This document shows, piece by piece, positions 9,844 to 27,072 of a stretch of 36,793 nt of DNA. The stretch spans positions 1 to 36,793 of the forward strand of contig JAGVYH010000016.1 of NCBI GenBank assembly GCA_018303325.1, read 5' to 3'. Below the pieces are notes generated by a model, which had not been told where the DNA came from, made no database searches, and saw only the letters and a program-made list of their open reading frames with translations. The first letter of the stretch is position 1, and each line of letters starts with the position of its first letter. The position numbers were made by a program, and so were the translations under genes. The stretch is from Candidatus Woesearchaeota archaeon (GTDB taxonomy: Archaea > Nanobdellota > Nanobdellia > Woesearchaeales > DSVV01).

Positions 9844-10260
9844 ATGGTAATGCTATTTGACTTGTTTAACCTATCTGAAGATGTTTATGAAGTTATATTC
9901 GCAACCAAGCAGCAGGCTATAGTAGGAAAACTTTTACTCAGAGAAATGAAGAAAAAGAATGGTGTTATGAACAAGGCAGAAATGAGCGAGTTTGCTACAT
10001 TGTTGCATGATGGTGAAATGATAACTGAAATTGAAGCACCACCATATCTTGGAAAGAAAGTAAAATTGAGTTACAATAAAAGACAATTCTATGATAGAAT
10101 CTTAACACCAATGAAATCAATGGGTATGATAGATTATGATCTTTACAAAAAAGTTTACAGAGTGAGCGATAATTTTAATAAAGTGTTGACAAAGATAGGT
10201 ATTATGTGGATGCAGGAATACAGAAGAGACCTTAACAAGGAATCTAAAAAATTATTATAA
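9844..10260 (+). CDS. Unknown protein, possibly winged-helix, 138 aa
   Basis: This is a small helix-rich protein with no cysteine and no membrane segment. Residues 15-60 (EVIFATKQQAIVGKLLLREM, then NKAEMSEFATLLHDGEMI) and 75-115 (KRQFYDRILTPMKSMGMIDY, then DLYKKVYRVSDNF) alternate helices with a beta hairpin. The second half resembles the last helix and wing of a winged-helix domain (a D..ILTPMKSMGMI-like helix followed by a hydrophobic strand pair). The resemblance is structural guesswork. Start at ATG 9844, with ATG 9850 also possible; both fit leaderless transcription. It may be a transcription regulator, but no family is recognised. Confidence 0.7.
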   Translation: MVMLFDLFNLSEDVYEVIFATKQQAIVGKLLLREMKKKNGVMNKAEMSEFATLLHDGEMITEIEAPPYLGKKVKLSYNKRQFYDRILTPMKSMGMIDYDLYKKVYRVSDNFNKVLTKIGIMWMQEYRRDLNKESKKLL

Positions 10261-11620: not shown

Positions 11621-14600
11621 CTAAGTAACTTCTATTCTTCCATGCAAATCTCCATACTTTGTATTGAATCGTTCAATGAGTTCTTGTGTACTTCTGCGGA
11701 AGCCGATGATATATCCTTTGGCATCATTCACTTGTGGGATATCCTGATGATCTTGTGGGCTCACAATTCCATACGTATCAGAAATTGGTTTTTTGGCTTG
11801 TGCAGGGTCATAATGATTAATCCAGAATCCTTCCAGCAAATGTTCTCCTGTGTATGATTCATCGAAAACTTTTTCCAAGTAATGAACATTTTTTTGTGCT
11901 ACTGTTTTGTTGAATTTAAATCCCTGTTCACTCATGGTCTTAACATTAACACCATGTCCAGTACTGCCATCATCAATTCGGCTTTGCTTATAAGTAAAAT
12001 CCTTTTCTTCTTCTAGTTCCAGCAATTCTGCAATATGACGAATATACTGCCATACTGAGCGCTGTGCGAGCTTATGAGATGTATTAAAAACAATTTCGTT
12101 TATATGATGCATTCGCGCAGTTTGAAGAATAGCTTTTGTATAGAGAGGCAACCAGTGTGCTTCATGGTTTGGCTCATCAAGGAAATCAGCGATATCCTGC
12201 AACATCACCACACCATCAACATACAGCAATTCTTTACTTTCTCTATCATGACATCGAGATAGGAAAGCTTTGCCAACAGTTGACTTGTGCTGACTAGATT
12301 CATAAATGTTGGCAGCAATAATACTTATATTTCGATCCTGCATATGCGCATAGCCACACCTCTGAAATTTTCCTCCATTTCCAGTGCATTCAGCAGCATT
12401 ATTAAAAAAATTATGTAATGGATTTTCATTAAATTCTAATCTCAACTCGTCAAACGTCCACGATGTAGAAAGGCCATTTTTCAGGCGGTTAATAGCGTTG
12501 ATAAAATCATCATCCAATCCATGCTTTATTCCCAAGTAATATTTAGAATCAAGGATTCGGGTAAAAAGAATATCCGGCTGATCAACAAACAATGAATCAG
12601 CGCTAATTTGTTTTTTCTTGGCAGTTTCTAAATAGCGTTGTATTGGTTCTTCCTTTTCATGGAAAAAGCGATTAAAATTAAATTTAGCAAGGGTCTCAGC
12701 AACTTCTGGAGGAAGAAATTTTTCTTGTTTTTCTTTCCATAATTCTACAATGGAACTCACTGCCGCTTGGCGAAAAGATGCTTTCTCCTTAAATGTTTGG
12801 CTTTGCGCTATTTGATGCATTTCTCTAAATAAATAACCAATAGCATCAACTTCACGAAGCATTCTCTCCCTTATGCCTTGTTTTTTCCCCTGAGGACGTG
12901 CTGTCGTGACAGTATACTTTGACAAGATTCCTGGAACAAACAGAGAGCTGCTTTCGGTAAGAATGGCAGATGAAAAATGTGAGTAGTGCTCGAGGAACGC
13001 CCATTTTGGAAGAGATTCGTGTTCACCTTTTGGGGTAGCATCCAATTCGAAAAATGGGATAGCCATCTCTTTTGCATTTTTTAGCGCCAGAAGATACACG
13101 TCGAGTTGCTGAGGAGAAGCTGTTAAAAATTCAGTTAGTCTCTCTACTAATTCTGGTCTTCTGACGAGACTGTCAATGCTAAAAGCCACTTCAAAAAAGT
13201 CATGCAGCGTTCTTTCCAATGCAATCTCTACAATTTGTTTTCTCTTTTTTGGAACAGATGAAACTTCTTCCATGAGCTGCTTTACATAATCTTGTTTTTC
13301 CGCTTCATCTGATGGCAGCACGCACAAAAAATAAAGCGGATGCTTTGCAGGAAATATCATGGGCATTCCATACGCTTGTTTGAGTTCAACATATAATGTA
13401 AGTGCCTTATCCAGAGCTTTCGTCATTTCAGAAGAAGTATAAGCTTCGAAGAATACTTGTTTCATTCTTTTTTTAGTGGCTTCGTCAAAATGAGGATACT
13501 CTTGCTGAATATCTCTAAGACGCTGGTCAATAAATGAACCGTCTGTTTGTTTTTCAGTTTTTTTTTCATTAGAAACTATATGTTTCCACACAGCATCTGG
13601 CCCTCCGGTTGCTATAGCAAAAATATTTTCCTGAGTGAGTTGATTAACAGGGACATAGAGAAGATTCTCCAAAGCAAGTTTTCTTCGTGCTCCTGTTTCA
13701 TCATGGGCAGTTTCAGCCAAAGCATATTCCAATAATTTTCCGAGACGAAAAAATGTCTCTCTTCTTGCTGATTCTTCCATGGATTTCATCACTGCTTCAT
13801 TTGTCTGGAATAAATGAGGGAAATGATACACTATAAAAGTAAATGCTTCAGCAGAATGAACGCTTCCCAGAGAAGACGGAAGCTCTTCGACCATAAATTT
13901 GATAGCTGATCTGTTGACGTAAGTATCATAATTTTTACTATAACCATACATCTTATTACGATAATCTTGACCATAATCAGGTTTAAAGAATGTGTTTATG
14001 CTTTCTCTGCCCCATGCAGCAAGCACATTTTCCAGTGAAATGACTGGATACTTTTTTTCACCTGCTTCATTTTCTAAATCAGATAACTCTGCCAATGGCA
14101 TTGCAATTCTGAGCAATTCCCAAGTTGATATCCCCAATCTTGGCAATCCTTCATGTTGAGAATGATATCGCGGATTGTCAATCATGCTTTGTGCAAGATA
14201 AACATCTTTTATTCTCTGAGTTGCATAGCCGGAAAGATCCATCATAGAGCCATCGATTACTTTGTCAATGCCTTCAGGTTCGCGAGGCCGGTTTTCCCAA
14301 ATTTCTTTTGTTTTTTTCCATATTTTTTTATAGCGGTCAAGATTGCCTAAACTTAGTTCTAAATCAGCAACGTCGAACCAGCGCATTTTGTTGAATTCTC
14401 TTTCAAGTAGTTCTTCATATTCACTTATATGTCTCTTGGCTTTAACTCTTCTCTCAAATTCTTCAATGACTTCACGATACAAGGAAGCGCTTCGCTGCAG
14501 CTGATGATGTTCCATAACTATACACAGTTCACGTGCATGTTCCATTATCGCACATAGTTCACGTGCTTTAGATGGCATCCTCGAAGCGTTGTTTTCGTTA

Positions 14601-15430
14601 AGAAGATTCTCCAATATTTTTTCTGATTTCTTCTTCACCTTGCTTTGGCAGCCGTGCTTTTCTCCATACTCAAACAAATCTTGATAACGGCTTTGATCTG
14701 CCAGTATTTTGACTGCTTTGTCATGAAGATTATATTTTTCAGCATAACTAATTGCTTCATCTGTTCTCTGTTCGGAGCATAAAATGGCCAGCGATTTCTC
14801 ATGCATTGCTTTATCTTCTGCATATTTCAAAGCTCCATCAATATCTTTCATCTTCAGAAGTGTTTCGACGGCGACTCCGTTTAAATTTTGCTCTTGCGCA
14901 TACCTGAGTAAACGGGGGTGGTCATTTAATTGTATCAGGAAATCCAATGCATAAGTATGATTATTATGCTGCAAGGCTAACTCAACACCGTCCTCAAATC
15001 GTTTCAATTCTTTCAGAAGCTCCAGTTGCAGCTGAACAAGCCCTAATGATTTTGCTGCATTATACTGTCTATTAATATTGCCTATCCGTTCGTGAATACG
15101 AAGCGCTTCTCGATTGTAAATCTCGTGAGTATCTGCAAAATCAGATGCTTGACGCAGGAGTTCTTGAACTTTTTGATATGCTTCTTGTTGACGCTGGTCA
15201 TAATTACAATAACATACGAAATTAGTCGTGAATATTCCTCCTTCATTATTACATTCTTCTTCATCACCACATCTGTCATCGTGGTGAATATCTCCTTTCT
15301 CTTTGTCCGGAGAAGAAAGTTGTTCTACTAATGCGTCAAACTGCAACTTTTTGTCTGATTCAACTATTCCACCAACTATTCCAACTGTTGAAATGCTTGA
15401 CACTCCTTCTGTTATTACATCATCTTTCAT
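11621..15430 (-). CDS. Giant 1269-aa alpha-solenoid protein of unknown function
   Basis: I do not recognise a named family. Residues 54, 60, 73 and 75 are cysteines (C-x5-C-x12-C-x-C), a possible metal site. Residues about 150-260 form roughly five helical repeats of about 26 residues, of the type SYAEKYNLHDKAVKILADQ, resembling clathrin/TPR-like alpha-solenoids. A short in-frame tandem duplication, ARELCAIMEH/ARELCIVMEH, follows near 288-307. The middle is helical and charged. The last 270 residues form a separate alpha/beta-looking domain (ISIIAANIY, KAFLSRCHD, ELLYVDGVVM, INEIVFNTSHKLAQRS), vaguely acetyltransferase-like but unproven. There is no signal peptide or membrane segment, so it is probably cytoplasmic. 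ATG 15430 overlaps the stop of the 16-codon mini-ORF as ATGA. Composition appears richer in GC than that of neighbouring genes, suggesting transfer. Confidence 0.85.
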   Translation of the reverse strand: MKDDVITEGVSSISTVGIVGGIVESDKKLQFDALVEQLSSPDKEKGDIHHDDRCGDEEECNNEGGIFTTNFVCYCNYDQRQQEAYQKVQELLRQASDFADTHEIYNREALRIHERIGNINRQYNAAKSLGLVQLQLELLKELKRFEDGVELALQHNNHTYALDFLIQLNDHPRLLRYAQEQNLNGVAVETLLKMKDIDGALKYAEDKAMHEKSLAILCSEQRTDEAISYAEKYNLHDKAVKILADQSRYQDLFEYGEKHGCQSKVKKKSEKILENLLNENNASRMPSKARELCAIMEHARELCIVMEHHQLQRSASLYREVIEEFERRVKAKRHISEYEELLEREFNKMRWFDVADLELSLGNLDRYKKIWKKTKEIWENRPREPEGIDKVIDGSMMDLSGYATQRIKDVYLAQSMIDNPRYHSQHEGLPRLGISTWELLRIAMPLAELSDLENEAGEKKYPVISLENVLAAWGRESINTFFKPDYGQDYRNKMYGYSKNYDTYVNRSAIKFMVEELPSSLGSVHSAEAFTFIVYHFPHLFQTNEAVMKSMEESARRETFFRLGKLLEYALAETAHDETGARRKLALENLLYVPVNQLTQENIFAIATGGPDAVWKHIVSNEKKTEKQTDGSFIDQRLRDIQQEYPHFDEATKKRMKQVFFEAYTSSEMTKALDKALTLYVELKQAYGMPMIFPAKHPLYFLCVLPSDEAEKQDYVKQLMEEVSSVPKKRKQIVEIALERTLHDFFEVAFSIDSLVRRPELVERLTEFLTASPQQLDVYLLALKNAKEMAIPFFELDATPKGEHESLPKWAFLEHYSHFSSAILTESSSLFVPGILSKYTVTTARPQGKKQGIRERMLREVDAIGYLFREMHQIAQSQTFKEKASFRQAAVSSIVELWKEKQEKFLPPEVAETLAKFNFNRFFHEKEEPIQRYLETAKKKQISADSLFVDQPDILFTRILDSKYYLGIKHGLDDDFINAINRLKNGLSTSWTFDELRLEFNENPLHNFFNNAAECTGNGGKFQRCGYAHMQDRNISIIAANIYESSQHKSTVGKAFLSRCHDRESKELLYVDGVVMLQDIADFLDEPNHEAHWLPLYTKAILQTARMHHINEIVFNTSHKLAQRSVWQYIRHIAELLELEEEKDFTYKQSRIDDGSTGHGVNVKTMSEQGFKFNKTVAQKNVHYLEKVFDESYTGEHLLEGFWINHYDPAQAKKPISDTYGIVSPQDHQDIPQVNDAKGYIIGFRRSTQELIERFNTKYGDLHGRIEVT

Positions 15431-15477
15431 ATTACATCATCTTTCATATTACCATATTTCATGTTACTATCTTTCAT
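15414..15477. repeat. Four head-to-tail units at the giant gene's start
   Basis: ATTACATCATCTTTCAT occurs twice in perfect tandem (15414-15430, 15431-15447). Two 15-base relatives follow (15448-15462, 15463-15477), all ending in TTTCAT, the complement of an ATGAAA start. The array duplicates the translation start of the 1269-aa gene. Confidence 0.75.
15427..15477 (-). CDS. 16-aa mini-ORF linking regulator and giant gene
   Basis: The frame encodes MKDSNMKYGNMKDDVI. Its ATG overlaps the TGA of the upstream regulator gene (ATGA), and its TGA overlaps the ATG of the giant gene (ATGA again). It therefore bridges the two genes without a gap. It consists of repeated units (15414-15430 and 15431-15447 are identical 17-mers; 15448-15462 and 15463-15477 are degraded copies), each containing ATGAAAKAT. 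It may be only the product of a slippage duplication of the giant gene's start. The double overlap would still allow termination-reinitiation coupling. There is no evidence that the peptide itself has a function. Confidence 0.4.
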   Translation of the reverse strand: MKDSNMKYGNMKDDVI

Positions 15478-16502
15478 GTTACCCTCGGCGTGAATTTATA
15501 CTGCCTCAAAACTGTTGACGTCTCATAAGCAATAATCGAATCATGAAATTGCTCCTGCAATCGCTGCACTACTTCATTAAACTCAGTGTTGTTTTTCGCA
15601 AAAATACTGACATGGTAATTCCATCGTCCCAAGCGTTTGCTTAACCAGACAATTTTCGGCTCCTGACGTAAATAGTGCATAAAACTATGTTCATCAATGT
15701 TTTTCTTTCGTAGATATAATTCATACCATTGATATCCTAAATAAGAAAAAGAGGCATAAGGAATAAAATGTTTAATTACTCTTTGTTCAACCAAATTCGC
15801 TAATCGCTTTTGGATAGAGGTAGTAGCTAACTGAACATCATGTGCCAGTTGCACCAAAGGGATGCGGCTGTTTAATTTAAGATGATGCAATATTTCTTTA
15901 TCTTTTGCGTCAATTTTAACTGTTTTAACTATTCCTTTTTTTTGGCTGAAAAACAGGTTATGAAATGATGAGCCTTTATGCTCTGAAATAGTTGGCCGTT
16001 CTTTGAGATTTTCTACAAGAAAGTCCAATCCCATAAAATGATCTTCTAAAATAGTAGAAATGGCATAATCCTTAATAATAGCATGATGCTTATTAACCAA
16101 GGAATCAAAAAATTCCATGAACTCTCTTATTGTGGTAGCAGTCATTCCAAACTGTAAATTCACCAATGAATTAAGATGCTTGAGATGTGTTACTCGCTTA
16201 TCTGCAAGCAAATAATTCAACAGCTCCTGCTGATTATAAGAAGGATGCAGCAGCACATTGACAGAATGAGTGATATATCCTAACTTTTCCGTATTTATCA
16301 GTGTAATAAAGCCATGAAGAAAATCCTTTTTTTGAAGTCCTTTAATTCGATAATGAACAACCTCTTTGGAAAGGTTAAGTGATTTGGCAATGCTGCTCTC
16401 AGAAAAACGGGCATTAAGGCTTAACAAGTACAAAATTTTTCTGTCAGTAAGATCAAGCTCAATACGATTGTTGTGTTCGTGAAATTGCCCCATAAATTCC
16501 AT
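15474..16502 (-). CDS. Double Lrp/AsnC-like transcriptional regulator
   Basis: The 342-aa protein is two Lrp/AsnC-type modules in tandem. Module 1: helix-turn-helix in LDLTDRKILYLLSLNARFSE to SLNLSKEVVHYRIKGLQ (about 15-60) followed by an effector-domain-like region. Module 2: IDAKDKEILHHLKLNSRIPL to TTSIQKRLANLVEQRVI (about 197-245), again followed by a beta-alpha-beta region (YQWYELYLRKKN). Single Lrp proteins are about 150 aa, so this is a natural covalent dimer form. ATG 16502 follows GGTGATC, a good ribosome binding site. It is divergent from the hydrolase gene (about 110-135 bases) and overlaps the mini-ORF leading into the giant gene, so it is a plausible controller of both. Confidence 0.85.
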   Translation of the reverse strand: MEFMGQFHEHNNRIELDLTDRKILYLLSLNARFSESSIAKSLNLSKEVVHYRIKGLQKKDFLHGFITLINTEKLGYITHSVNVLLHPSYNQQELLNYLLADKRVTHLKHLNSLVNLQFGMTATTIREFMEFFDSLVNKHHAIIKDYAISTILEDHFMGLDFLVENLKERPTISEHKGSSFHNLFFSQKKGIVKTVKIDAKDKEILHHLKLNSRIPLVQLAHDVQLATTSIQKRLANLVEQRVIKHFIPYASFSYLGYQWYELYLRKKNIDEHSFMHYLRQEPKIVWLSKRLGRWNYHVSIFAKNNTEFNEVVQRLQEQFHDSIIAYETSTVLRQYKFTPRVT

Positions 16503-16599
16503 AAGTGATCACCAATATATAATACATAACACCCCAAAAACTTAACAAAACCACTTATTCTTTATTAAATTTGTGCAATTGTGAAAAAAATTAATCCGC

Positions 16600-16610
16600 T
16601 ATTTTAATTA
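16600..16610 (+). promoter_or_regulatory. TATA-like element before the hydrolase gene
   Basis: ATTTTAATTAT lies about 30-35 nt before ATG 16639. Spacing favours this ATG as a nearly leaderless start over the longer TTG start at 16612. Confidence 0.3.
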
Positions 16611-16638
16611 TTTGGACATACCTATTTCTATATTCCTT

Positions 16639-17904
16639 ATGACACTCAATACTTTACTTCATAACATACGAAACAGCGTACGAAACAATCTTAGACAATT
16701 AGTTATGCCTAAATATATAATTATCACAGTAGGGCTCACTATAGCATGCTGCTCTTCTCCTATAATTTCTTATTCCAAAAGAAATCAAACACAATTAACT
16801 GATTTGCTGCAACAGATAGATGCGAATCTTCCTATAATTACGCAGGATGCCAACCTTGCAACTGGCCTTTCAAATAATCGGCGAATACAGGATGATGAAC
16901 TATCAGAGTATAAGCCAATACAGTTTACTTTACCAAACGGAACATTGGAAGAAGGTATATATAAGCAAGGAGAGAGTACTGCACCATTGCTAATTGGAAG
17001 CTTTGGATTTTTTTCCGATGTACATGCCAATGCAGTGTATAATTTTACGCACATAGTACTAGAAGAAGTGCTGCAGAACTATAATGTTCTTATTCTTAAT
17101 CATCCCTCCAGTGCCCCTTTTTACTGTGCAAATGGAGAAGCCAGTTGGGGCGGGATTGAAGAAGGTTATATTATAGTTGAAATTGCCAAACAAATGAAAG
17201 AACAATTTGACATTCCCGTTGTTCATGCTATTGGCGTCAGTATGGGTGGAAACGGCGTGATGCATGCTGCGTACAGAGGAAAAGATGTACTTGATTCAGC
17301 CGTAGTGTTTTCTTCTGTAACAGATTTTCTTGACGTGCCTGGAAATACATTAAGGGGTCTTCGAGATGACAGCGAATTCGGGCCAGCCTTTTGGAGCTTT
17401 ACCAACTGGTTGAATAATATAGGAATGGAAATGCTCTACGATGGTTTTGAAGAAGAAAGAAAAAAAAATCCTGCGTGCAAGGGCAAATTCTTTACATTGG
17501 AAGAAATTGAAACAATTTATCTCACCACGCCGCGCTATGCAAATGCTGAACGTATGGAAGAATACCTCGCTCTTTATATCACTGATAAAATACTTCCAGA
17601 AAAAATGCCAAGCTCACTGGAAGAGTATCTCAGCATGAGCGATGCTACTCATATTGCATCTTCTATTCAAATTCCTTTGTTTGTCGTGCACGCGCATGAC
17701 GATGCTGTTGTCTCGGAGCACCATTTCTATCGATTTATGCTAGCAGGGCGGGAAAATTCCTTTATCAACGGCATTATTACCACTGATGGTGGACATTGGG
17801 GCTTTGCTGCGGCGTATGGTACAAAATTTGTGGCCTGCTTGATTAGGACGTACACAGAATATTGGTCAAAGCCTAAGCTGAAGCTTGAATCAAAATGCTT
17901 CTGA
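16639..17904 (+). CDS. Probably exported alpha/beta hydrolase
   Basis: The 421-aa protein has the alpha/beta-hydrolase catalytic set: nucleophile elbow GVSMGG (Ser about 201), an acid in HAHDDAVV, and a histidine in TDGGHWGF (about 386). LIGSFGFFSD and NHPSSAPFYCAN lie at the oxyanion and lid regions. The layout resembles YheT/ABHD1-3-type hydrolases. Near the N terminus, PKYIIITVGLTIACCSSP is a hydrophobic segment followed by a lipobox-like TIAC-C, so it may be a membrane-anchored or secreted esterase. Three starts are possible: TTG 16612, ATG 16639 (TATA spacing) and ATG 16705 (starts right at the signal segment). It is divergent from the Lrp-like regulator. Substrate is unknown. Confidence 0.82.
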   Translation: MTLNTLLHNIRNSVRNNLRQLVMPKYIIITVGLTIACCSSPIISYSKRNQTQLTDLLQQIDANLPIITQDANLATGLSNNRRIQDDELSEYKPIQFTLPNGTLEEGIYKQGESTAPLLIGSFGFFSDVHANAVYNFTHIVLEEVLQNYNVLILNHPSSAPFYCANGEASWGGIEEGYIIVEIAKQMKEQFDIPVVHAIGVSMGGNGVMHAAYRGKDVLDSAVVFSSVTDFLDVPGNTLRGLRDDSEFGPAFWSFTNWLNNIGMEMLYDGFEEERKKNPACKGKFFTLEEIETIYLTTPRYANAERMEEYLALYITDKILPEKMPSSLEEYLSMSDATHIASSIQIPLFVVHAHDDAVVSEHHFYRFMLAGRENSFINGIITTDGGHWGFAAAYGTKFVACLIRTYTEYWSKPKLKLESKCF

Positions 17905-17917
17905 ATCAAAATGCTTC
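17886..17917. repeat. 16-bp tandem duplication across the hydrolase stop
   Basis: TGAATCAAAATGCTTC occurs twice head to tail (17886-17901, 17902-17917). The first copy encodes the last residues (ESKCF) and the second starts with the TGA stop, leaving a short spacer to the next ATG at 17924. Confidence 0.75.
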
Positions 17918-17923
17918 TGAAAC

Positions 17924-18439
17924 ATGATATTAGAATGGGGTTATCATGGGCTAAGCCTTGAACAATGGAGCAGAATTTTACAAAAAGGAGAGTTAAAGCC
18001 AGCCTCTCGATTGGATGTCTTTATCAACAGAAATGCTGCGCTAGAAGAACTGGTAGTGAGGCCTTTTCTTAAAGAAATTGAACTTCCAAATTTTGTATAT
18101 CCCCTTTATTCTTTTTTTATTCCTCGTAGTTCTTCTGGAGAAGAGTACCTCGCCAAAATTCCTGAGTCTTATACAAAAGCCAGACAATTCCTTCGTCAGT
18201 TTATTGACGCTCGTATGGAAGTACTAATTAAAGCGCGCCTGCCTGCAGAAAGAATTTATGTTGTTGACTTCGCTAAGCTGATTCCTGTGTATGACCTAAT
18301 AGTAGACAGAACACGAGGATGGATGGATTATTTAAAGAGTTTTACACCACTAGATAAGTATACGGAAAAAGAAGAGACTATGCCAGAAATTCTCGTCAGC
18401 GACACGATTCCCTTAGAAAACATTGTTCGGATATTTTAA
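17924..18439 (+). CDS. Possible ADP-ribosyltransferase-fold protein, 171 aa
   Basis: The N terminus, GYHGLSLEQWSRILQKGELK, resembles the YH-G-[ST]-L..IL..G opening of ADP-ribosyltransferase-fold proteins (DarT, Tpt1 and PARP-like groups). The C terminus PEILVSDTIPLENIVRIF resembles their [AP]E-[VI]-LV....IP...I strand with the catalytic glutamate. The middle has FVYPLYSFFIPRSSSGEEY and a helical region with basic residues. Length fits small toxin-like members. No macrodomain antitoxin is adjacent. It follows the hydrolase by 19 nt without a ribosome binding site, so it is probably cotranscribed. The fold call rests on two motifs seen by eye, and an unrelated fold is possible. Confidence 0.7.
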   Translation: MILEWGYHGLSLEQWSRILQKGELKPASRLDVFINRNAALEELVVRPFLKEIELPNFVYPLYSFFIPRSSSGEEYLAKIPESYTKARQFLRQFIDARMEVLIKARLPAERIYVVDFAKLIPVYDLIVDRTRGWMDYLKSFTPLDKYTEKEETMPEILVSDTIPLENIVRIF

Positions 18440-18577: not shown

Positions 18578-19162
18578 ATGGTAAACAATTTCAAACCAAC
18601 TGAAAAAGAGGCATTAAAGCTATTGGCAAGATATGCGCCTGATAAGCATAGCTATGACGCTGTTTTAAGACACGTGAAAGCAGTGCAGAAAGCAGCGTTG
18701 ATGATAGTTAAAGATGTAGATAACACTAAATGCGACAAACATTTAATCAAAGTTGCATCATTGCTGCATGATATTGGCAGGTTTGATTGTCCACCTAACT
18801 CAGGAAAGGATAAGATAATTCAGCATGGTATTGTCGGTTCAAGAATACTAAAAAAAGAAGGCTGGCCAAAAACTTATCAACGTGTCTGCGAAACGCATAT
18901 TGGCATTGGTATAAGAAAGAAAGATATTATTGAACAAAAATTACCCTTACCATTAAAGGATTTTGTGCCAAGAACATTTGAAGAAAAAATAATAGCTTAT
19001 GCTGATAATTTAGTTGATAATGATAAAATTAAAGACGAGAAATATGTTGTAGAGCGGTTCAGAAAAGAATTCGGCGAAGAATTTGCAAGAAGAGTAGAGA
19101 GATTTCATGAAGATATTAATTTGCTTTTAGCTAAAAAAAAGAAGTATAGTCACGGACATTAA
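18578..19162 (+). CDS. HD-domain metal-dependent phosphohydrolase (TIGR00295-like)
   Basis: The 194-aa protein carries the HD signature: HVKAVQKAA (first His), LLHDIGRF (His-Asp pair), then HGIVGSRIL and ETHIGIG with further metal ligands. The order and length match the archaeal HDIG proteins of the TIGR00295 type, whose substrate is not established; HD enzymes hydrolyse nucleotides or phosphate esters. The C terminus is a charged helix (RRVERFHEDINLLLAKKKKY). It has its own promoter at 18517. The stop codon lies inside the loop region of a 12-bp hairpin (19145-19190), which also covers the last codons. Confidence 0.85.
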   Translation: MVNNFKPTEKEALKLLARYAPDKHSYDAVLRHVKAVQKAALMIVKDVDNTKCDKHLIKVASLLHDIGRFDCPPNSGKDKIIQHGIVGSRILKKEGWPKTYQRVCETHIGIGIRKKDIIEQKLPLPLKDFVPRTFEEKIIAYADNLVDNDKIKDEKYVVERFRKEFGEEFARRVERFHEDINLLLAKKKKYSHGH

Positions 19163-19492: not shown

Positions 19493-19498
19493 CAAAAA

Positions 19499-19595
19499 AT
19501 ATACTAAAAGTGATTAATTTTCGAACAAATTAATCACTTTTGTAAGTTGGAAAGCAAAGCTTTCTAACTTCTCAGGAATCTCTGATTCCCGAGAT
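19499..19595 (+). repeat. Composite repeat copy 1, 97-bp hairpin module B
   Basis: It matches 26976-27072 in the same orientation at 96 of 97 bases (19524 A versus 27001 T). It contains three hairpins: AAAAGTGATTAATTT with its complement around a 6-base centre, AAGTTGGAAAGC-AAA-GCTTTCTAACTT, and CTCAGGAATC-TCT-GATTCCCGAG. The module ends 7 bases before ATG 19603 of the endonuclease V homologue, so a transcript reading into that gene would have the hairpins directly before the start codon. Confidence 0.75.
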
Positions 19596-19602
19596 TGTGA
19601 AC

Positions 19603-20346
19603 ATGTTAGATTTAAAAAAGCTAAAAGAGGAGCAGTTAAAGTTAGCGAAAAAAATAGTTCTTACAGATAGTTTTGAAACCATTAAAAAGATTGCAGGTGT
19701 TGATTATATTTACACTGATAAGGATATTATCTGCGCAATTGTTGTTATTGACTACAAAACACTGCAGATTATTGAATCAAAGTATTCTGCTGAACCAATG
19801 AGCATACCTTATATTCCTGGATTCTTAAGCTACAGAATCGCTCCTGTTACCTTAAAAACAATTGAAAAATTAGTAAACAGACCAGATTTATTAATGATTG
19901 CTGGTAATGGAATCATGCATCCAAGGCAAATTGGCGCAGCAAGCGCGATTGGTTTGTTTATAGATTTGCCAACAATAGGAATAGCAAAGAAAAGACTGTG
20001 CGGAGAAGAAAAAGGAGATACTGTTTATCTTGGAAAAGATGTTATTGGCAAGAAATTAGAAACAAGGGATAAAGCAAAGCCAATATACGTGAGCCAAGGG
20101 CACAAAATAAGCCTAACTTCGACGATAGAAATAACAAAAAACATGCTCAAAGGCCACAAACTGCCAGAGCCGCTGTATTTTGCGCATAGGTATGGGAATA
20201 AGATTAAAAGTAAACTAAAAGAAGGTAATGGCAATGGTTCAAAGAAAGATAACAATAGCTTAAAAGAAGATAATGGCAATGGTTCAAAGGCAGAGAATAG
20301 TGATAGTAATAAAAATAAGAACAGCACATTAGCTAACAATTCTTAA
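19603..20346 (+). CDS. Endonuclease V homologue with degenerate active site
   Basis: The 247-aa protein aligns by eye with endonuclease V over its length: AGVD (Asp34), IPYIPGFLSYR, HPRQIGAASAIG, DLPTIGIAKKRLCG and SQGHKISL. The family (Nfi) cuts DNA or RNA next to inosine with a metal held by Asp, Glu and Asp (D43, E89, D110 in Thermotoga). Here Asp34 is kept, but the Glu of FREx is Ile79 and the Asp of VDGHG is Ala100 (IAGNG; the His is Asn102). The lysine and the late histidine (His167) remain. It may bind without cutting. The C-terminal 45 residues are a low-complexity Asn/Gly/Lys tail with a duplicated LKE-NGNGSK unit. ATG 19603 is taken; GTG 19597 is also in frame. Confidence 0.88.
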   Translation: MLDLKKLKEEQLKLAKKIVLTDSFETIKKIAGVDYIYTDKDIICAIVVIDYKTLQIIESKYSAEPMSIPYIPGFLSYRIAPVTLKTIEKLVNRPDLLMIAGNGIMHPRQIGAASAIGLFIDLPTIGIAKKRLCGEEKGDTVYLGKDVIGKKLETRDKAKPIYVSQGHKISLTSTIEITKNMLKGHKLPEPLYFAHRYGNKIKSKLKEGNGNGSKKDNNSLKEDNGNGSKAENSDSNKNKNSTLANNS

Positions 20347-20400: not shown

Positions 20401-20422
20401 CAGTTGTTTCTTAATCTTGACC

Positions 20423-20701
20423 ATGGCAGACGAAGATATTGTGGATGAAGAAAAAACAGAGGAAAACGAAGGCATTTACTCAGACGAAGGAAGAGAGGAA
20501 ATGCTGGACAATGATGAGATTGATTCATTTGAAGAAGGATTTATGCAGGGCGCAGAGATGGATGGCCAGAAAGCAAAATGTAGAAAATGCGGCAGAATCC
20601 TAATAAATCCTAAAAGCACAGTTGAAAGAGAAGTCAACGGAAAATTAATCTGGTTCTGCAGCGAGAAATGCGCTGATAAGTATGAAGAACTGCAGGGATA
20701 G
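20423..20701 (+). CDS. Acidic zinc-ribbon protein (TRASH/YHS-like finger)
   Basis: The 92-aa protein has an acidic N-terminal half (MADEDIVDEEKTEENEGIYS) and a C-terminal zinc finger: CRKCG ... WFCSEKCADKYEEL. The C-x2-C ... C-x3-C spacing with F preceding the third Cys resembles TRASH/YHS-type treble-clef fingers, which bind metals or mediate protein contacts. The acidic arm suggests interaction with a basic partner. It has no membrane segment. The start is ATG at 20423, leaderless. It lies between the endonuclease V homologue and a site-2 protease, each with a separate promoter. Confidence 0.75.
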   Translation: MADEDIVDEEKTEENEGIYSDEGREEMLDNDEIDSFEEGFMQGAEMDGQKAKCRKCGRILINPKSTVEREVNGKLIWFCSEKCADKYEELQG

Positions 20702-22217: not shown

Positions 22218-23099
22218 ATGGAAACTAACAAAATACATAATACAACTAATAAGATACACAACGCATTGGTTGTATTTGAAGGCAAACAGATTAGAAGGAC
22301 TTGGTTTAATGAGGAGTGGTGGTTTTCTGTAGTTGATGTAATTAGTGTTTTAACAGAACAAGTAGACTTTCAAATAGCAAGGAAGTATTGGAATAAGCTA
22401 AGCCAACGGTTAAGAGAAGAAGGAAGCGAAGTGGTGACAAATTGTCACCAGTTGAAATTACCAGCAGAAGATGGAAAACTTAGAGAAACCGATTGTGCTA
22501 ATACTGAAGTATTGTTTCGTATTATTCAGTCTATTCCTTCTAAGAAAGCAGAACCTTTCAAACTTTGGCTTGCTCAAGTTGGTTATGAACGAGTGCAAGA
22601 AATAGAAAACCCAGAACTTGCACAAAAACGAATGAAAGAAATTTACAAAGCCAAAGGTTATTCTGATGATTGGATTGAAAAAAGAGTAAGAGGAATAGTA
22701 GTAAGAGATGAGCTTACTGACGAATGGAGTAAAAGAGGTGTTAAAGCTGAAAAAGAGTATGCAATACTTACTGCTGAAATTTCAAAAGCCACATTTGGAA
22801 TGACTCCAAGCGAATATAAAGAATTTAAAGGCTTGAAAAAAGAGAACTTGAGAGATCATATGAATGACTTAGAGCTGATTTTTACCATGTTGGGTGAAGC
22901 CTCTACTACAAGAATTGCGAGAGATAAAGATGCTCAAGGGTTTATTGAAAATAAGGATGCGGCAAAGAAAGGCGGAATAGTTGCGGGTGTAGCAAGAAGA
23001 GAACTTGAACAGCAAAGTGTCCGAAAAGTATCCACACCAGATAATTTTCTTTCTGAACCAGAAAAGAAGAAAAAATTAGAAGATAAACGCAAAAAATAA
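22218..23099 (+). CDS. BRO-N/DinD-like prophage antirepressor family protein
   Basis: The 293-aa protein opens with a BRO-N domain (ALVVFEGKQIRRTWFNEEWW, then SVVDVISVLT and TEVLFRIIQSIPSKKAEPFK with LAQVGYERVQE), as in viral BRO and phage antirepressor proteins. The second half matches the DinD type (ISKATFGMTPSEYKEFKGLK, ENLRDHMNDLELIFTMLGE, AAKKGGIVAGVARRELE). DinD-like proteins counter recombination intermediates or DNA-damage responses in bacteria; archaeal copies are usually stray mobile genes. It starts with ATG 22218, leaderless. It lies just inside the right copy of the 23-bp inverted repeat (23105-23127), which suits a mobile-element cargo. Confidence 0.85.
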   Translation: METNKIHNTTNKIHNALVVFEGKQIRRTWFNEEWWFSVVDVISVLTEQVDFQIARKYWNKLSQRLREEGSEVVTNCHQLKLPAEDGKLRETDCANTEVLFRIIQSIPSKKAEPFKLWLAQVGYERVQEIENPELAQKRMKEIYKAKGYSDDWIEKRVRGIVVRDELTDEWSKRGVKAEKEYAILTAEISKATFGMTPSEYKEFKGLKKENLRDHMNDLELIFTMLGEASTTRIARDKDAQGFIENKDAAKKGGIVAGVARRELEQQSVRKVSTPDNFLSEPEKKKKLEDKRKK

Positions 23100-26975: not shown

Positions 26976-27072
26976 ATATACTAAAAGTGATTAATTTTCG
27001 TACAAATTAATCACTTTTGTAAGTTGGAAAGCAAAGCTTTCTAACTTCTCAGGAATCTCTGATTCCCGAGAT
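26976..27072 (+). repeat. Composite repeat copy 2, 97-bp hairpin module B
   Basis: It is identical to 19499-19595 except for one base at the centre of the first hairpin. Here the module overlaps the 3' end of moxR (minus strand): its third hairpin encodes the last nine residues and its second hairpin provides the stop codon. Confidence 0.75.

What the first reader, a model, noticed from the sequence alone, without database searches (positions are those of the whole stretch)
19840..19935. Endonuclease V homologue has lost two of three catalytic metal ligands
Seen: the otherwise well-conserved YIPGFLSYR motif continues with Ile79 where endonuclease V has Glu (FREx), and IAGNG replaces VDGHG, so the Asp is Ala100. 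Asp34, Lys129/130 and His167 remain. Established: D43, E89 and D110 (Thermotoga numbering) hold the catalytic metal. Inference: the protein may be an inosine or mismatch binder without nuclease activity. It also has a duplicated Asn/Gly-rich tail and a repeat-derived upstream region.
Basis: partly seen in the sequence, partly recalled or inferred. Interest (0 to 1): 0.62.

Follow-up and report, generated by a model that had tools for sequence, protein, structure and literature searches.

The report
Non-catalytic endonuclease V lineage in Woesearchaeota
An archaeal copy of the DNA/RNA repair enzyme endonuclease V has lost two of the three residues that hold its catalytic metal but keeps the parts that recognise inosine, and the same kind of loss has happened about twenty or more times among its relatives while the gene stayed under strong selection, which suggests that here the protein is kept for binding, not cutting.

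Summary
The protein at 19603-20346 is a clear endonuclease V (EndoV; PF04493, E 2e-58). It has Ile79 where Thermotoga has the metal ligand E89, and Ala100 where it has D110. D43, K139 and H214 are kept, as are the PYIP wedge and the residues of the hypoxanthine pocket. It is neither a sequencing error nor recent decay: a same-genus genome has the same Ile/Ala, two sister-genus genomes have Ile-Ser and Val-Ser, and dN/dS is about 0.09. The larger finding goes beyond the window. Across Woesearchaeales and the rest of its class, only 47 of 150 EndoV sequences keep D-E-D. Rooted counts give 23-31 separate losses (about 10 if only the best-supported branches are trusted). Controls are intact: 65/65 Thermoplasmata and 14/15 Calditrichota. 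H116, R88 and the pocket glycines G113 and G121 hardly change. Eroded and intact copies sit in the same gene neighbourhood (XPD helicase, wHTH, HD protein, EndoV, small zinc protein), so this is in-place loss. Most likely reading: a pseudonuclease that still binds inosine-containing nucleic acid. Binding and any hand-over to partners are inferred, not shown. Main caution: the related Endo_dU family cleaves with an incomplete tetrad.

The parts
19603..20346 (+). Endonuclease V homologue lacking two metal ligands (eroded EndoV), 247 aa
   Evidence: Pfam PF04493 2.3e-58; AlphaFold2 pLDDT 90.4, best PDB matches are TmEndoV structures, rmsd 1.3-1.6 A
19837..19839 (+). Ile79 codon at the position of metal ligand Glu89 (Thermotoga)
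   Evidence: Alignments
19900..19902 (+). Ala100 codon at the position of metal ligand Asp110
   Evidence: Alignments
19702..19704 (+). Asp34 codon = Asp43, the one metal ligand retained
19807..19827 (+). PYIPGFL: strand-separating wedge and first half of the hypoxanthine pocket (P79-L85 in Thermotoga), retained
   Evidence: roles from PMC4650699
20205..20294 (+). 45-nt tandem duplication coding part of the Asn/Gly-rich C-terminal tail; tail predicted disordered
   Evidence: pLDDT 53-65
19497..19595 (+). Copy of a dispersed 99-bp three-hairpin repeat abutting the EndoV start
   Evidence: 72 matches in the genome; fold z-score -8.8
18578..19162 (+). HD-domain protein (TIGR00295-like), conserved upstream neighbour
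   Evidence: PF01966 4e-10; NCBIfam; found upstream of EndoV (-1 or -2) in 9 loci of 6 families
20417..20701 (+). Small zinc-ribbon protein (weakly L24e/YHS-like), conserved downstream neighbour
   Evidence: found after EndoV in 11 loci, sometimes overlapping its stop codon
6720..8810 (+). XPD/Rad3-family DNA repair helicase of the same conserved gene cluster, displaced upstream in this genome
   Evidence: TIGR00604 6e-75; near EndoV in 24 loci of 9 families
9844..10260 (+). Small protein of unknown family (called wHTH-like by inspection only) of the same cluster
   Evidence: 22 loci of 7 families

Best explanation
The gene is a vertically inherited EndoV whose catalytic metal site has been dismantled while its nucleic-acid recognition surface is kept. 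SHOWN here: two of three metal carboxylates are gone and fixed in the clade; the fold, wedge and pocket residues are kept; selection is strong; the gene neighbourhood is that of intact EndoV; and the same kind of loss recurs many times in related archaea but not in controls. INFERRED: it cannot assemble the catalytic metal, so it does not nick; it still flips and binds hypoxanthine in DNA or RNA. MORE SPECULATIVE: it acts as a lesion-binding factor that marks or hands over deaminated sites, for instance to the XPD-type helicase encoded in the same cluster or to an EndoQ-like nuclease found in the same genome. Because the loss recurs, catalysis was probably already dispensable in the common ancestor of these archaea.
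For: Ligand loss confirmed and fixed in 4 genomes of 2 genera. dN/dS 0.087 for the window pair, about 0.05-0.12 for most close eroded pairs, similar to intact pairs. 47/150 class sequences keep D-E-D, against 65/65 Thermoplasmata and 14/15 Calditrichota. Minimum changes on the tree: D110 25, D43 24, E89 12; G113 0, G121 1, H116 1, R88 4. Rooted no-regain counts: 31 losses, 23 with branches under 80 collapsed, 10 with branches under 95 collapsed. Same synteny for eroded and intact copies. Structural model matches TmEndoV D110N and E89Q mutants solved with inosine DNA at 1.3-1.4 A. Mouse EndoV D52A neither cuts RNA nor loses binding; it shifts substrate more strongly than wild type (PMC4842958).
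Against: No assay exists. Endo_dU (DUF99), an EndoV-like family, cleaves DNA with an incomplete DEDD set (PMC11585767). The window protein keeps D34, K129 and H195, so weak or unusual catalysis cannot be excluded. Pocket position Ile122 is Ala112 in the window clade, and pocket residue L85 is among the most variable columns elsewhere, so specificity may have shifted. Helicase and EndoQ partnership is gene context only; EndoQ presence does not track the erosion. The tree is a quick one with SH-aLRT support only.
Confidence: 0.66

Rival explanations
1. Still a nuclease: the protein cleaves with a remodelled site, holding metal through D34, H195 or other groups, possibly on another damaged base, as Endo_dU does.
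For: Endo_dU cleaves dU DNA with an incomplete tetrad, and its D10A mutant stays active (PMC11585767). Asp34, Lys129 and His195 are kept in the window clade. D110 is Glu, a possible ligand, in 17 of 150 sequences.
Against: No new acidic residue specific to the window clade lies in the active-site motifs; the only clade-specific acid is E64 (Tma 74), outside the motifs. Replacements across lineages are chemically scattered (K, N, S, A, R, P, G), which fits release from constraint rather than one new design.
Confidence: 0.2
2. Slow decay: EndoV is being lost by drift in small-genome DPANN archaea, and eroded copies are on the way to becoming pseudogenes.
For: Most genomes of the order have no EndoV at all (131 of 353 have one). 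Losses are scattered.
Against: dN/dS of eroded pairs is about as low as that of intact pairs. One whole family (f60) is almost entirely eroded yet keeps open frames. Pocket glycines, H116 and R88 stay nearly invariant.
Confidence: 0.09
3. New function on the same scaffold: an RNA- or protein-binding role unrelated to inosine, for example in tRNA or RNA metabolism.
For: In family f60 the wedge Ile is often Lys or Arg and pocket L85 varies. f60 neighbours include an MJ1316 RNA-end recognition domain gene. The HD neighbour resembles the HD part of the archaeal tRNA C56 methyltransferase fusion.
Against: In the window clade wedge and pocket are complete apart from Ala112. Neighbours shared across families are DNA-repair-like (XPD; PolX in f38).
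Confidence: 0.18

Closest known systems
Endonuclease V (Nfi; T. maritima, E. coli, human)
   Same: Orthologous fold, PYIP wedge, hypoxanthine pocket glycines, K139 and H214, His116 and Arg88 all kept
   Different: E89 and D110 replaced by Ile and Ala; no intact metal site
Engineered inactive EndoV: TmEndoV D110N (6ozf), E89Q (6ozg), D43A (2w36); mouse D52A
   Same: Metal-ligand mutants that still bind inosine nucleic acid
   Different: Laboratory single mutants; here a natural double loss fixed under selection
Endo_dU (DUF99, PF01949)
   Same: EndoV-like RNase H fold with an incomplete DEDD set in archaea; weak fold match 2qh9
   Different: 11% identity and much lower TM-score; separate Pfam family; shown to cleave dU DNA
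Catalytically inactive Argonaute/PIWI proteins (own knowledge; weak fold hits)
   Same: RNase H-fold nucleases that repeatedly lost their catalytic tetrad and work as binding modules
   Different: Guide-dependent, much larger; no close sequence relationship

Membership tests
Endonuclease V (nuclease) | Pfam Endonuclease_5 domain above curated cut-off | tested here: met
   197.6 bits against 23.4
Endonuclease V (nuclease) | NCBIfam equivalog cut-off (deoxyribonuclease V NF008629, endonuc_V NF041102) | tested here: not met
   192.3 bits against cut-offs 230 and 300
Endonuclease V (nuclease) | EndoV RNase H-like fold | tested here: met
   AlphaFold2 pLDDT 90.4, Foldseek to TmEndoV E 2e-23, rmsd 1.3-1.6 A
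Endonuclease V (nuclease) | Metal ligands D43, E89, D110 | tested here: not met
   Only D43 kept; E89 is Ile, D110 is Ala
Endonuclease V (nuclease) | PYIP wedge and hypoxanthine pocket (G83, L85, G111, G113, G121, L142) | tested here: met
   All kept in the window protein; roles from PMC4650699
Endonuclease V (nuclease) | Phosphate-locking K139 and H214 | tested here: met
   K129 and H195
Endonuclease V (nuclease) | Cleaves 3' of inosine | not testable with these tools
   Needs an assay
Endo_dU (DUF99) | DUF99 domain | tested here: not met
   Only Endonuclease_5 reported in the Pfam scan at E 0.001
Pseudoenzyme (inactive homologue retained by selection) | Catalytic residues lost, gene under purifying selection, orthologous position | tested here: met
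Pseudoenzyme (inactive homologue retained by selection) | No enzymatic activity | not testable with these tools
   Needs an assay

The most novel reading that the evidence does not exclude
In Woesearchaeales and related Nanoarchaeia, EndoV's selected function is no longer (or never mainly was) cutting: it is a family of inosine-reading pseudonucleases in which the metal site has decayed in parallel about twenty or more times, implying an ancestral nuclease-independent role for EndoV, perhaps together with the XPD-type helicase and the small zinc protein encoded beside it.
Probability: 0.45. Interest if true: 0.77.

Novelty: new variant of a known kind. Interest (0 to 1): 0.63.

Why it matters
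EndoV is treated as a universal inosine-directed nuclease whose biological role, especially on RNA, is still debated. A clade where the metal site is lost again and again while recognition residues and the gene itself are kept is a natural separation-of-function experiment: it says that binding alone is worth keeping, gives a set of natural inosine binders to test, and warns that annotation as 'deoxyribonuclease V' is misleading for about two thirds of the homologues sampled in this archaeal class. No paper in the held library on EndoV pseudoenzymes, or on EndoV in DPANN or Woesearchaeota as a topic, was found; this library lacks most subscription journals.

Tried and rejected
Sequencing error or recent decay: rejected, since the replacements are shared by independent assemblies of two genera and dN/dS is low. 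Horizontal replacement by a different family: unlikely, because eroded copies group with intact Woesearchaeota copies and share their neighbourhood. Redundancy with EndoQ as the simple cause: EndoQ-like genes (TIGR00375 matches, nearly all below the family cut-off) occur in nearly all EndoV-bearing genomes outside f60 whatever the EndoV state, and are missing from f60 except G206, where EndoV is almost entirely eroded, so presence does not track erosion. Compensating acidic residue in the window clade: none found in the motifs. A charge swap of D110 to Lys/Arg with K139 to Asp/Glu: 13 of 158 sequences, mostly one clade, left as a curiosity. A tRNA m1I57 link through the HD neighbour: only a weak family resemblance, not pursued. 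No Rfam family in the window.

Full report
OBSERVATION. The open frame 19603-20346 (+) encodes a 247-residue protein that is unmistakably EndoV by sequence (Pfam 2.3e-58; TmEndoV structures about 2e-37). It is the only EndoV in the genome. Position by position, D34 equals D43, I79 equals E89 and A100 equals D110 of Thermotoga. K129 and H195 equal the phosphate-locking K139 and H214. P69-Y70-I71-P72 is the wedge. G73, L75, G101, G103, G111 and L132 equal the pocket residues G83, L85, G111, G113, G121 and L142. Roles are from the E. coli EndoV structure paper (PMC4650699). So two of three metal carboxylates are gone and the recognition parts are complete, except that pocket-lining Ile122 is Ala112, a change specific to this clade.

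THE GENOME. The window lies in a 1.97 Mb draft genome. I infer that the 'order' of the tool is Woesearchaeales.

FIXED, NOT DECAYING. The same-genus genome has Ile/Ala; two genomes of a sister genus have Ile/Ser and Val/Ser. For the window and G001, dN is 0.055 and dS 0.636, ratio 0.087. Most close eroded pairs of other families give 0.05-0.12, and close intact pairs of the same order about 0.05-0.12. Eroded copies are thus about as constrained as intact ones over the whole protein.

RECURRENT LOSS. EndoV occurs in 131 of 353 genomes of the order. Across 150 sequences of the class, 47 keep D-E-D, 102 lack at least one ligand, 93 have a non-acidic residue in at least one ligand position, and 30 in at least two. 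The losses are nearly nested: D110 is missing in 100 of 150, and D43 or E89 is rarely lost while D110 is kept (3 cases). Two routes are seen. In most, D43, D110 and often K139 go while E89 stays (family f60, one large clade, is almost entirely of this kind). In the window clade E89 and D110 go while D43 and K139 stay. On a maximum-likelihood tree built without the catalytic columns, the minimum number of changes is 25 for D110, 24 for D43, 12 for E89 and 16 for K139. Rooted counts without regain give 31 triad losses, 23 with branches under 80 collapsed, and 10 with branches under 95 collapsed. Controls: 65/65 Thermoplasmata (including very divergent ones) and 14/15 Calditrichota keep D-E-D; the Micrarchaeota sequences are all D-E-N. 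The effect therefore belongs to these DPANN archaea and is not an alignment habit.

WHAT IS KEPT. Among columns invariant in the outgroup, G113 and P207 never change, G121, H116 and A123 change once, G136 twice, R88 four times and Y80 ten times, against 25, 24 and 16 for D110, D43 and K139. This is not perfect: L85 (28 changes) and A138 (25) are as variable as the ligands, and in f60 the wedge Ile is often Lys or Arg. Erosion is thus centred on catalysis, with part of the recognition site also drifting in some lineages, though hardly in the window clade.

STRUCTURE. AlphaFold2 on 60 relatives gives pLDDT 90.4 with a disordered tail. The best PDB matches are TmEndoV structures, including mutants D110N and E89Q bound to inosine DNA, at 1.3-1.4 A. 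These, and mouse D52A, which cannot cut but shifts substrate more strongly than wild type (PMC4842958), show that losing single metal ligands does not abolish binding. I did not inspect the model's side-chain geometry.

CONTEXT. In nine families of the order, EndoV lies near an XPD/Rad3 helicase (24 loci), with a small protein that I call wHTH-like by inspection (22 loci, 7 families), an HD protein (9 loci, 6 families) and a small zinc protein (11 loci); both intact and eroded EndoVs occupy this place. In the window's genus the cluster is split by 6.8 kb of genes (11621-18439) that are also found in G001 but not in G005 or G008. Family f38 has a PolX gene nearby, and f60 has SMC, AdoMet decarboxylase and MJ1316-domain genes. 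An EndoQ-like gene is present in the window's genome and in nearly all EndoV-bearing genomes outside f60, but absent in f60 except G206, so it does not explain the erosion.

INTERPRETATION. The most economical account is a nuclease-independent function, probably inosine recognition, that is under selection, with catalysis released from selection in the ancestor and lost many times. What is bound in the cell, DNA or RNA, and who acts next, is unknown. The main rival is residual or altered catalysis, for which Endo_dU is a real precedent (PMC11585767). The tree is a quick one; exact loss numbers will move.

KNOWN OR NEW. By descent this is EndoV; by its defining catalytic feature it is not an EndoV nuclease. 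Searches of the held papers for EndoV with pseudoenzyme or DPANN found nothing, and Woesearchaeota gave one unrelated paper on tRNA wobble.

Noticed in passing
window 19497-19595 and 26976-27072: Dispersed ~99-bp repeat, 72 BLAST matches in the genome with about 17 near full length; halves 1-48 and ~44-99 occur alone. Folds into three hairpins closed by a stem (z -8.8), variant copies show paired changes in hairpin arms, some copies end in an extra inverted module, no Rfam match. Looks like a modular MITE-like element; also present in G001.
   Followed up: partly
window 11621-18439: Four-gene block (1269-aa protein, Lrp-like regulator, alpha/beta hydrolase, 171-aa protein) that splits the XPD-EndoV gene cluster; present in the same-genus genome G001, absent at this place in sister-genus genomes G005 and G008. 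GC is slightly higher than the surroundings.
   Followed up: partly
families f60 (for example L093, L101, L104) and f4 (L015, L070): Other eroded EndoV forms: D110 to Lys or Arg together with K139 to acidic residues (13 sequences), a possible charge swap at the old metal site.
   Followed up: partly
L188, L200, L278 (Micrarchaeota): EndoV of Micrarchaeota is uniformly D-E-N with K139Q and H214D, so another DPANN phylum may also have altered EndoV; only 2 of 116 sampled genomes carry the gene.
   Followed up: no
L240, L237, L243, L247 (class family f90): EndoV homologues that also lack His116 and the HPR motif, a deeper erosion than in the window.
   Followed up: no
window 22218-23099: Bro-N domain protein, typical of viruses and mobile elements, shortly downstream of the EndoV cluster.
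   Followed up: no
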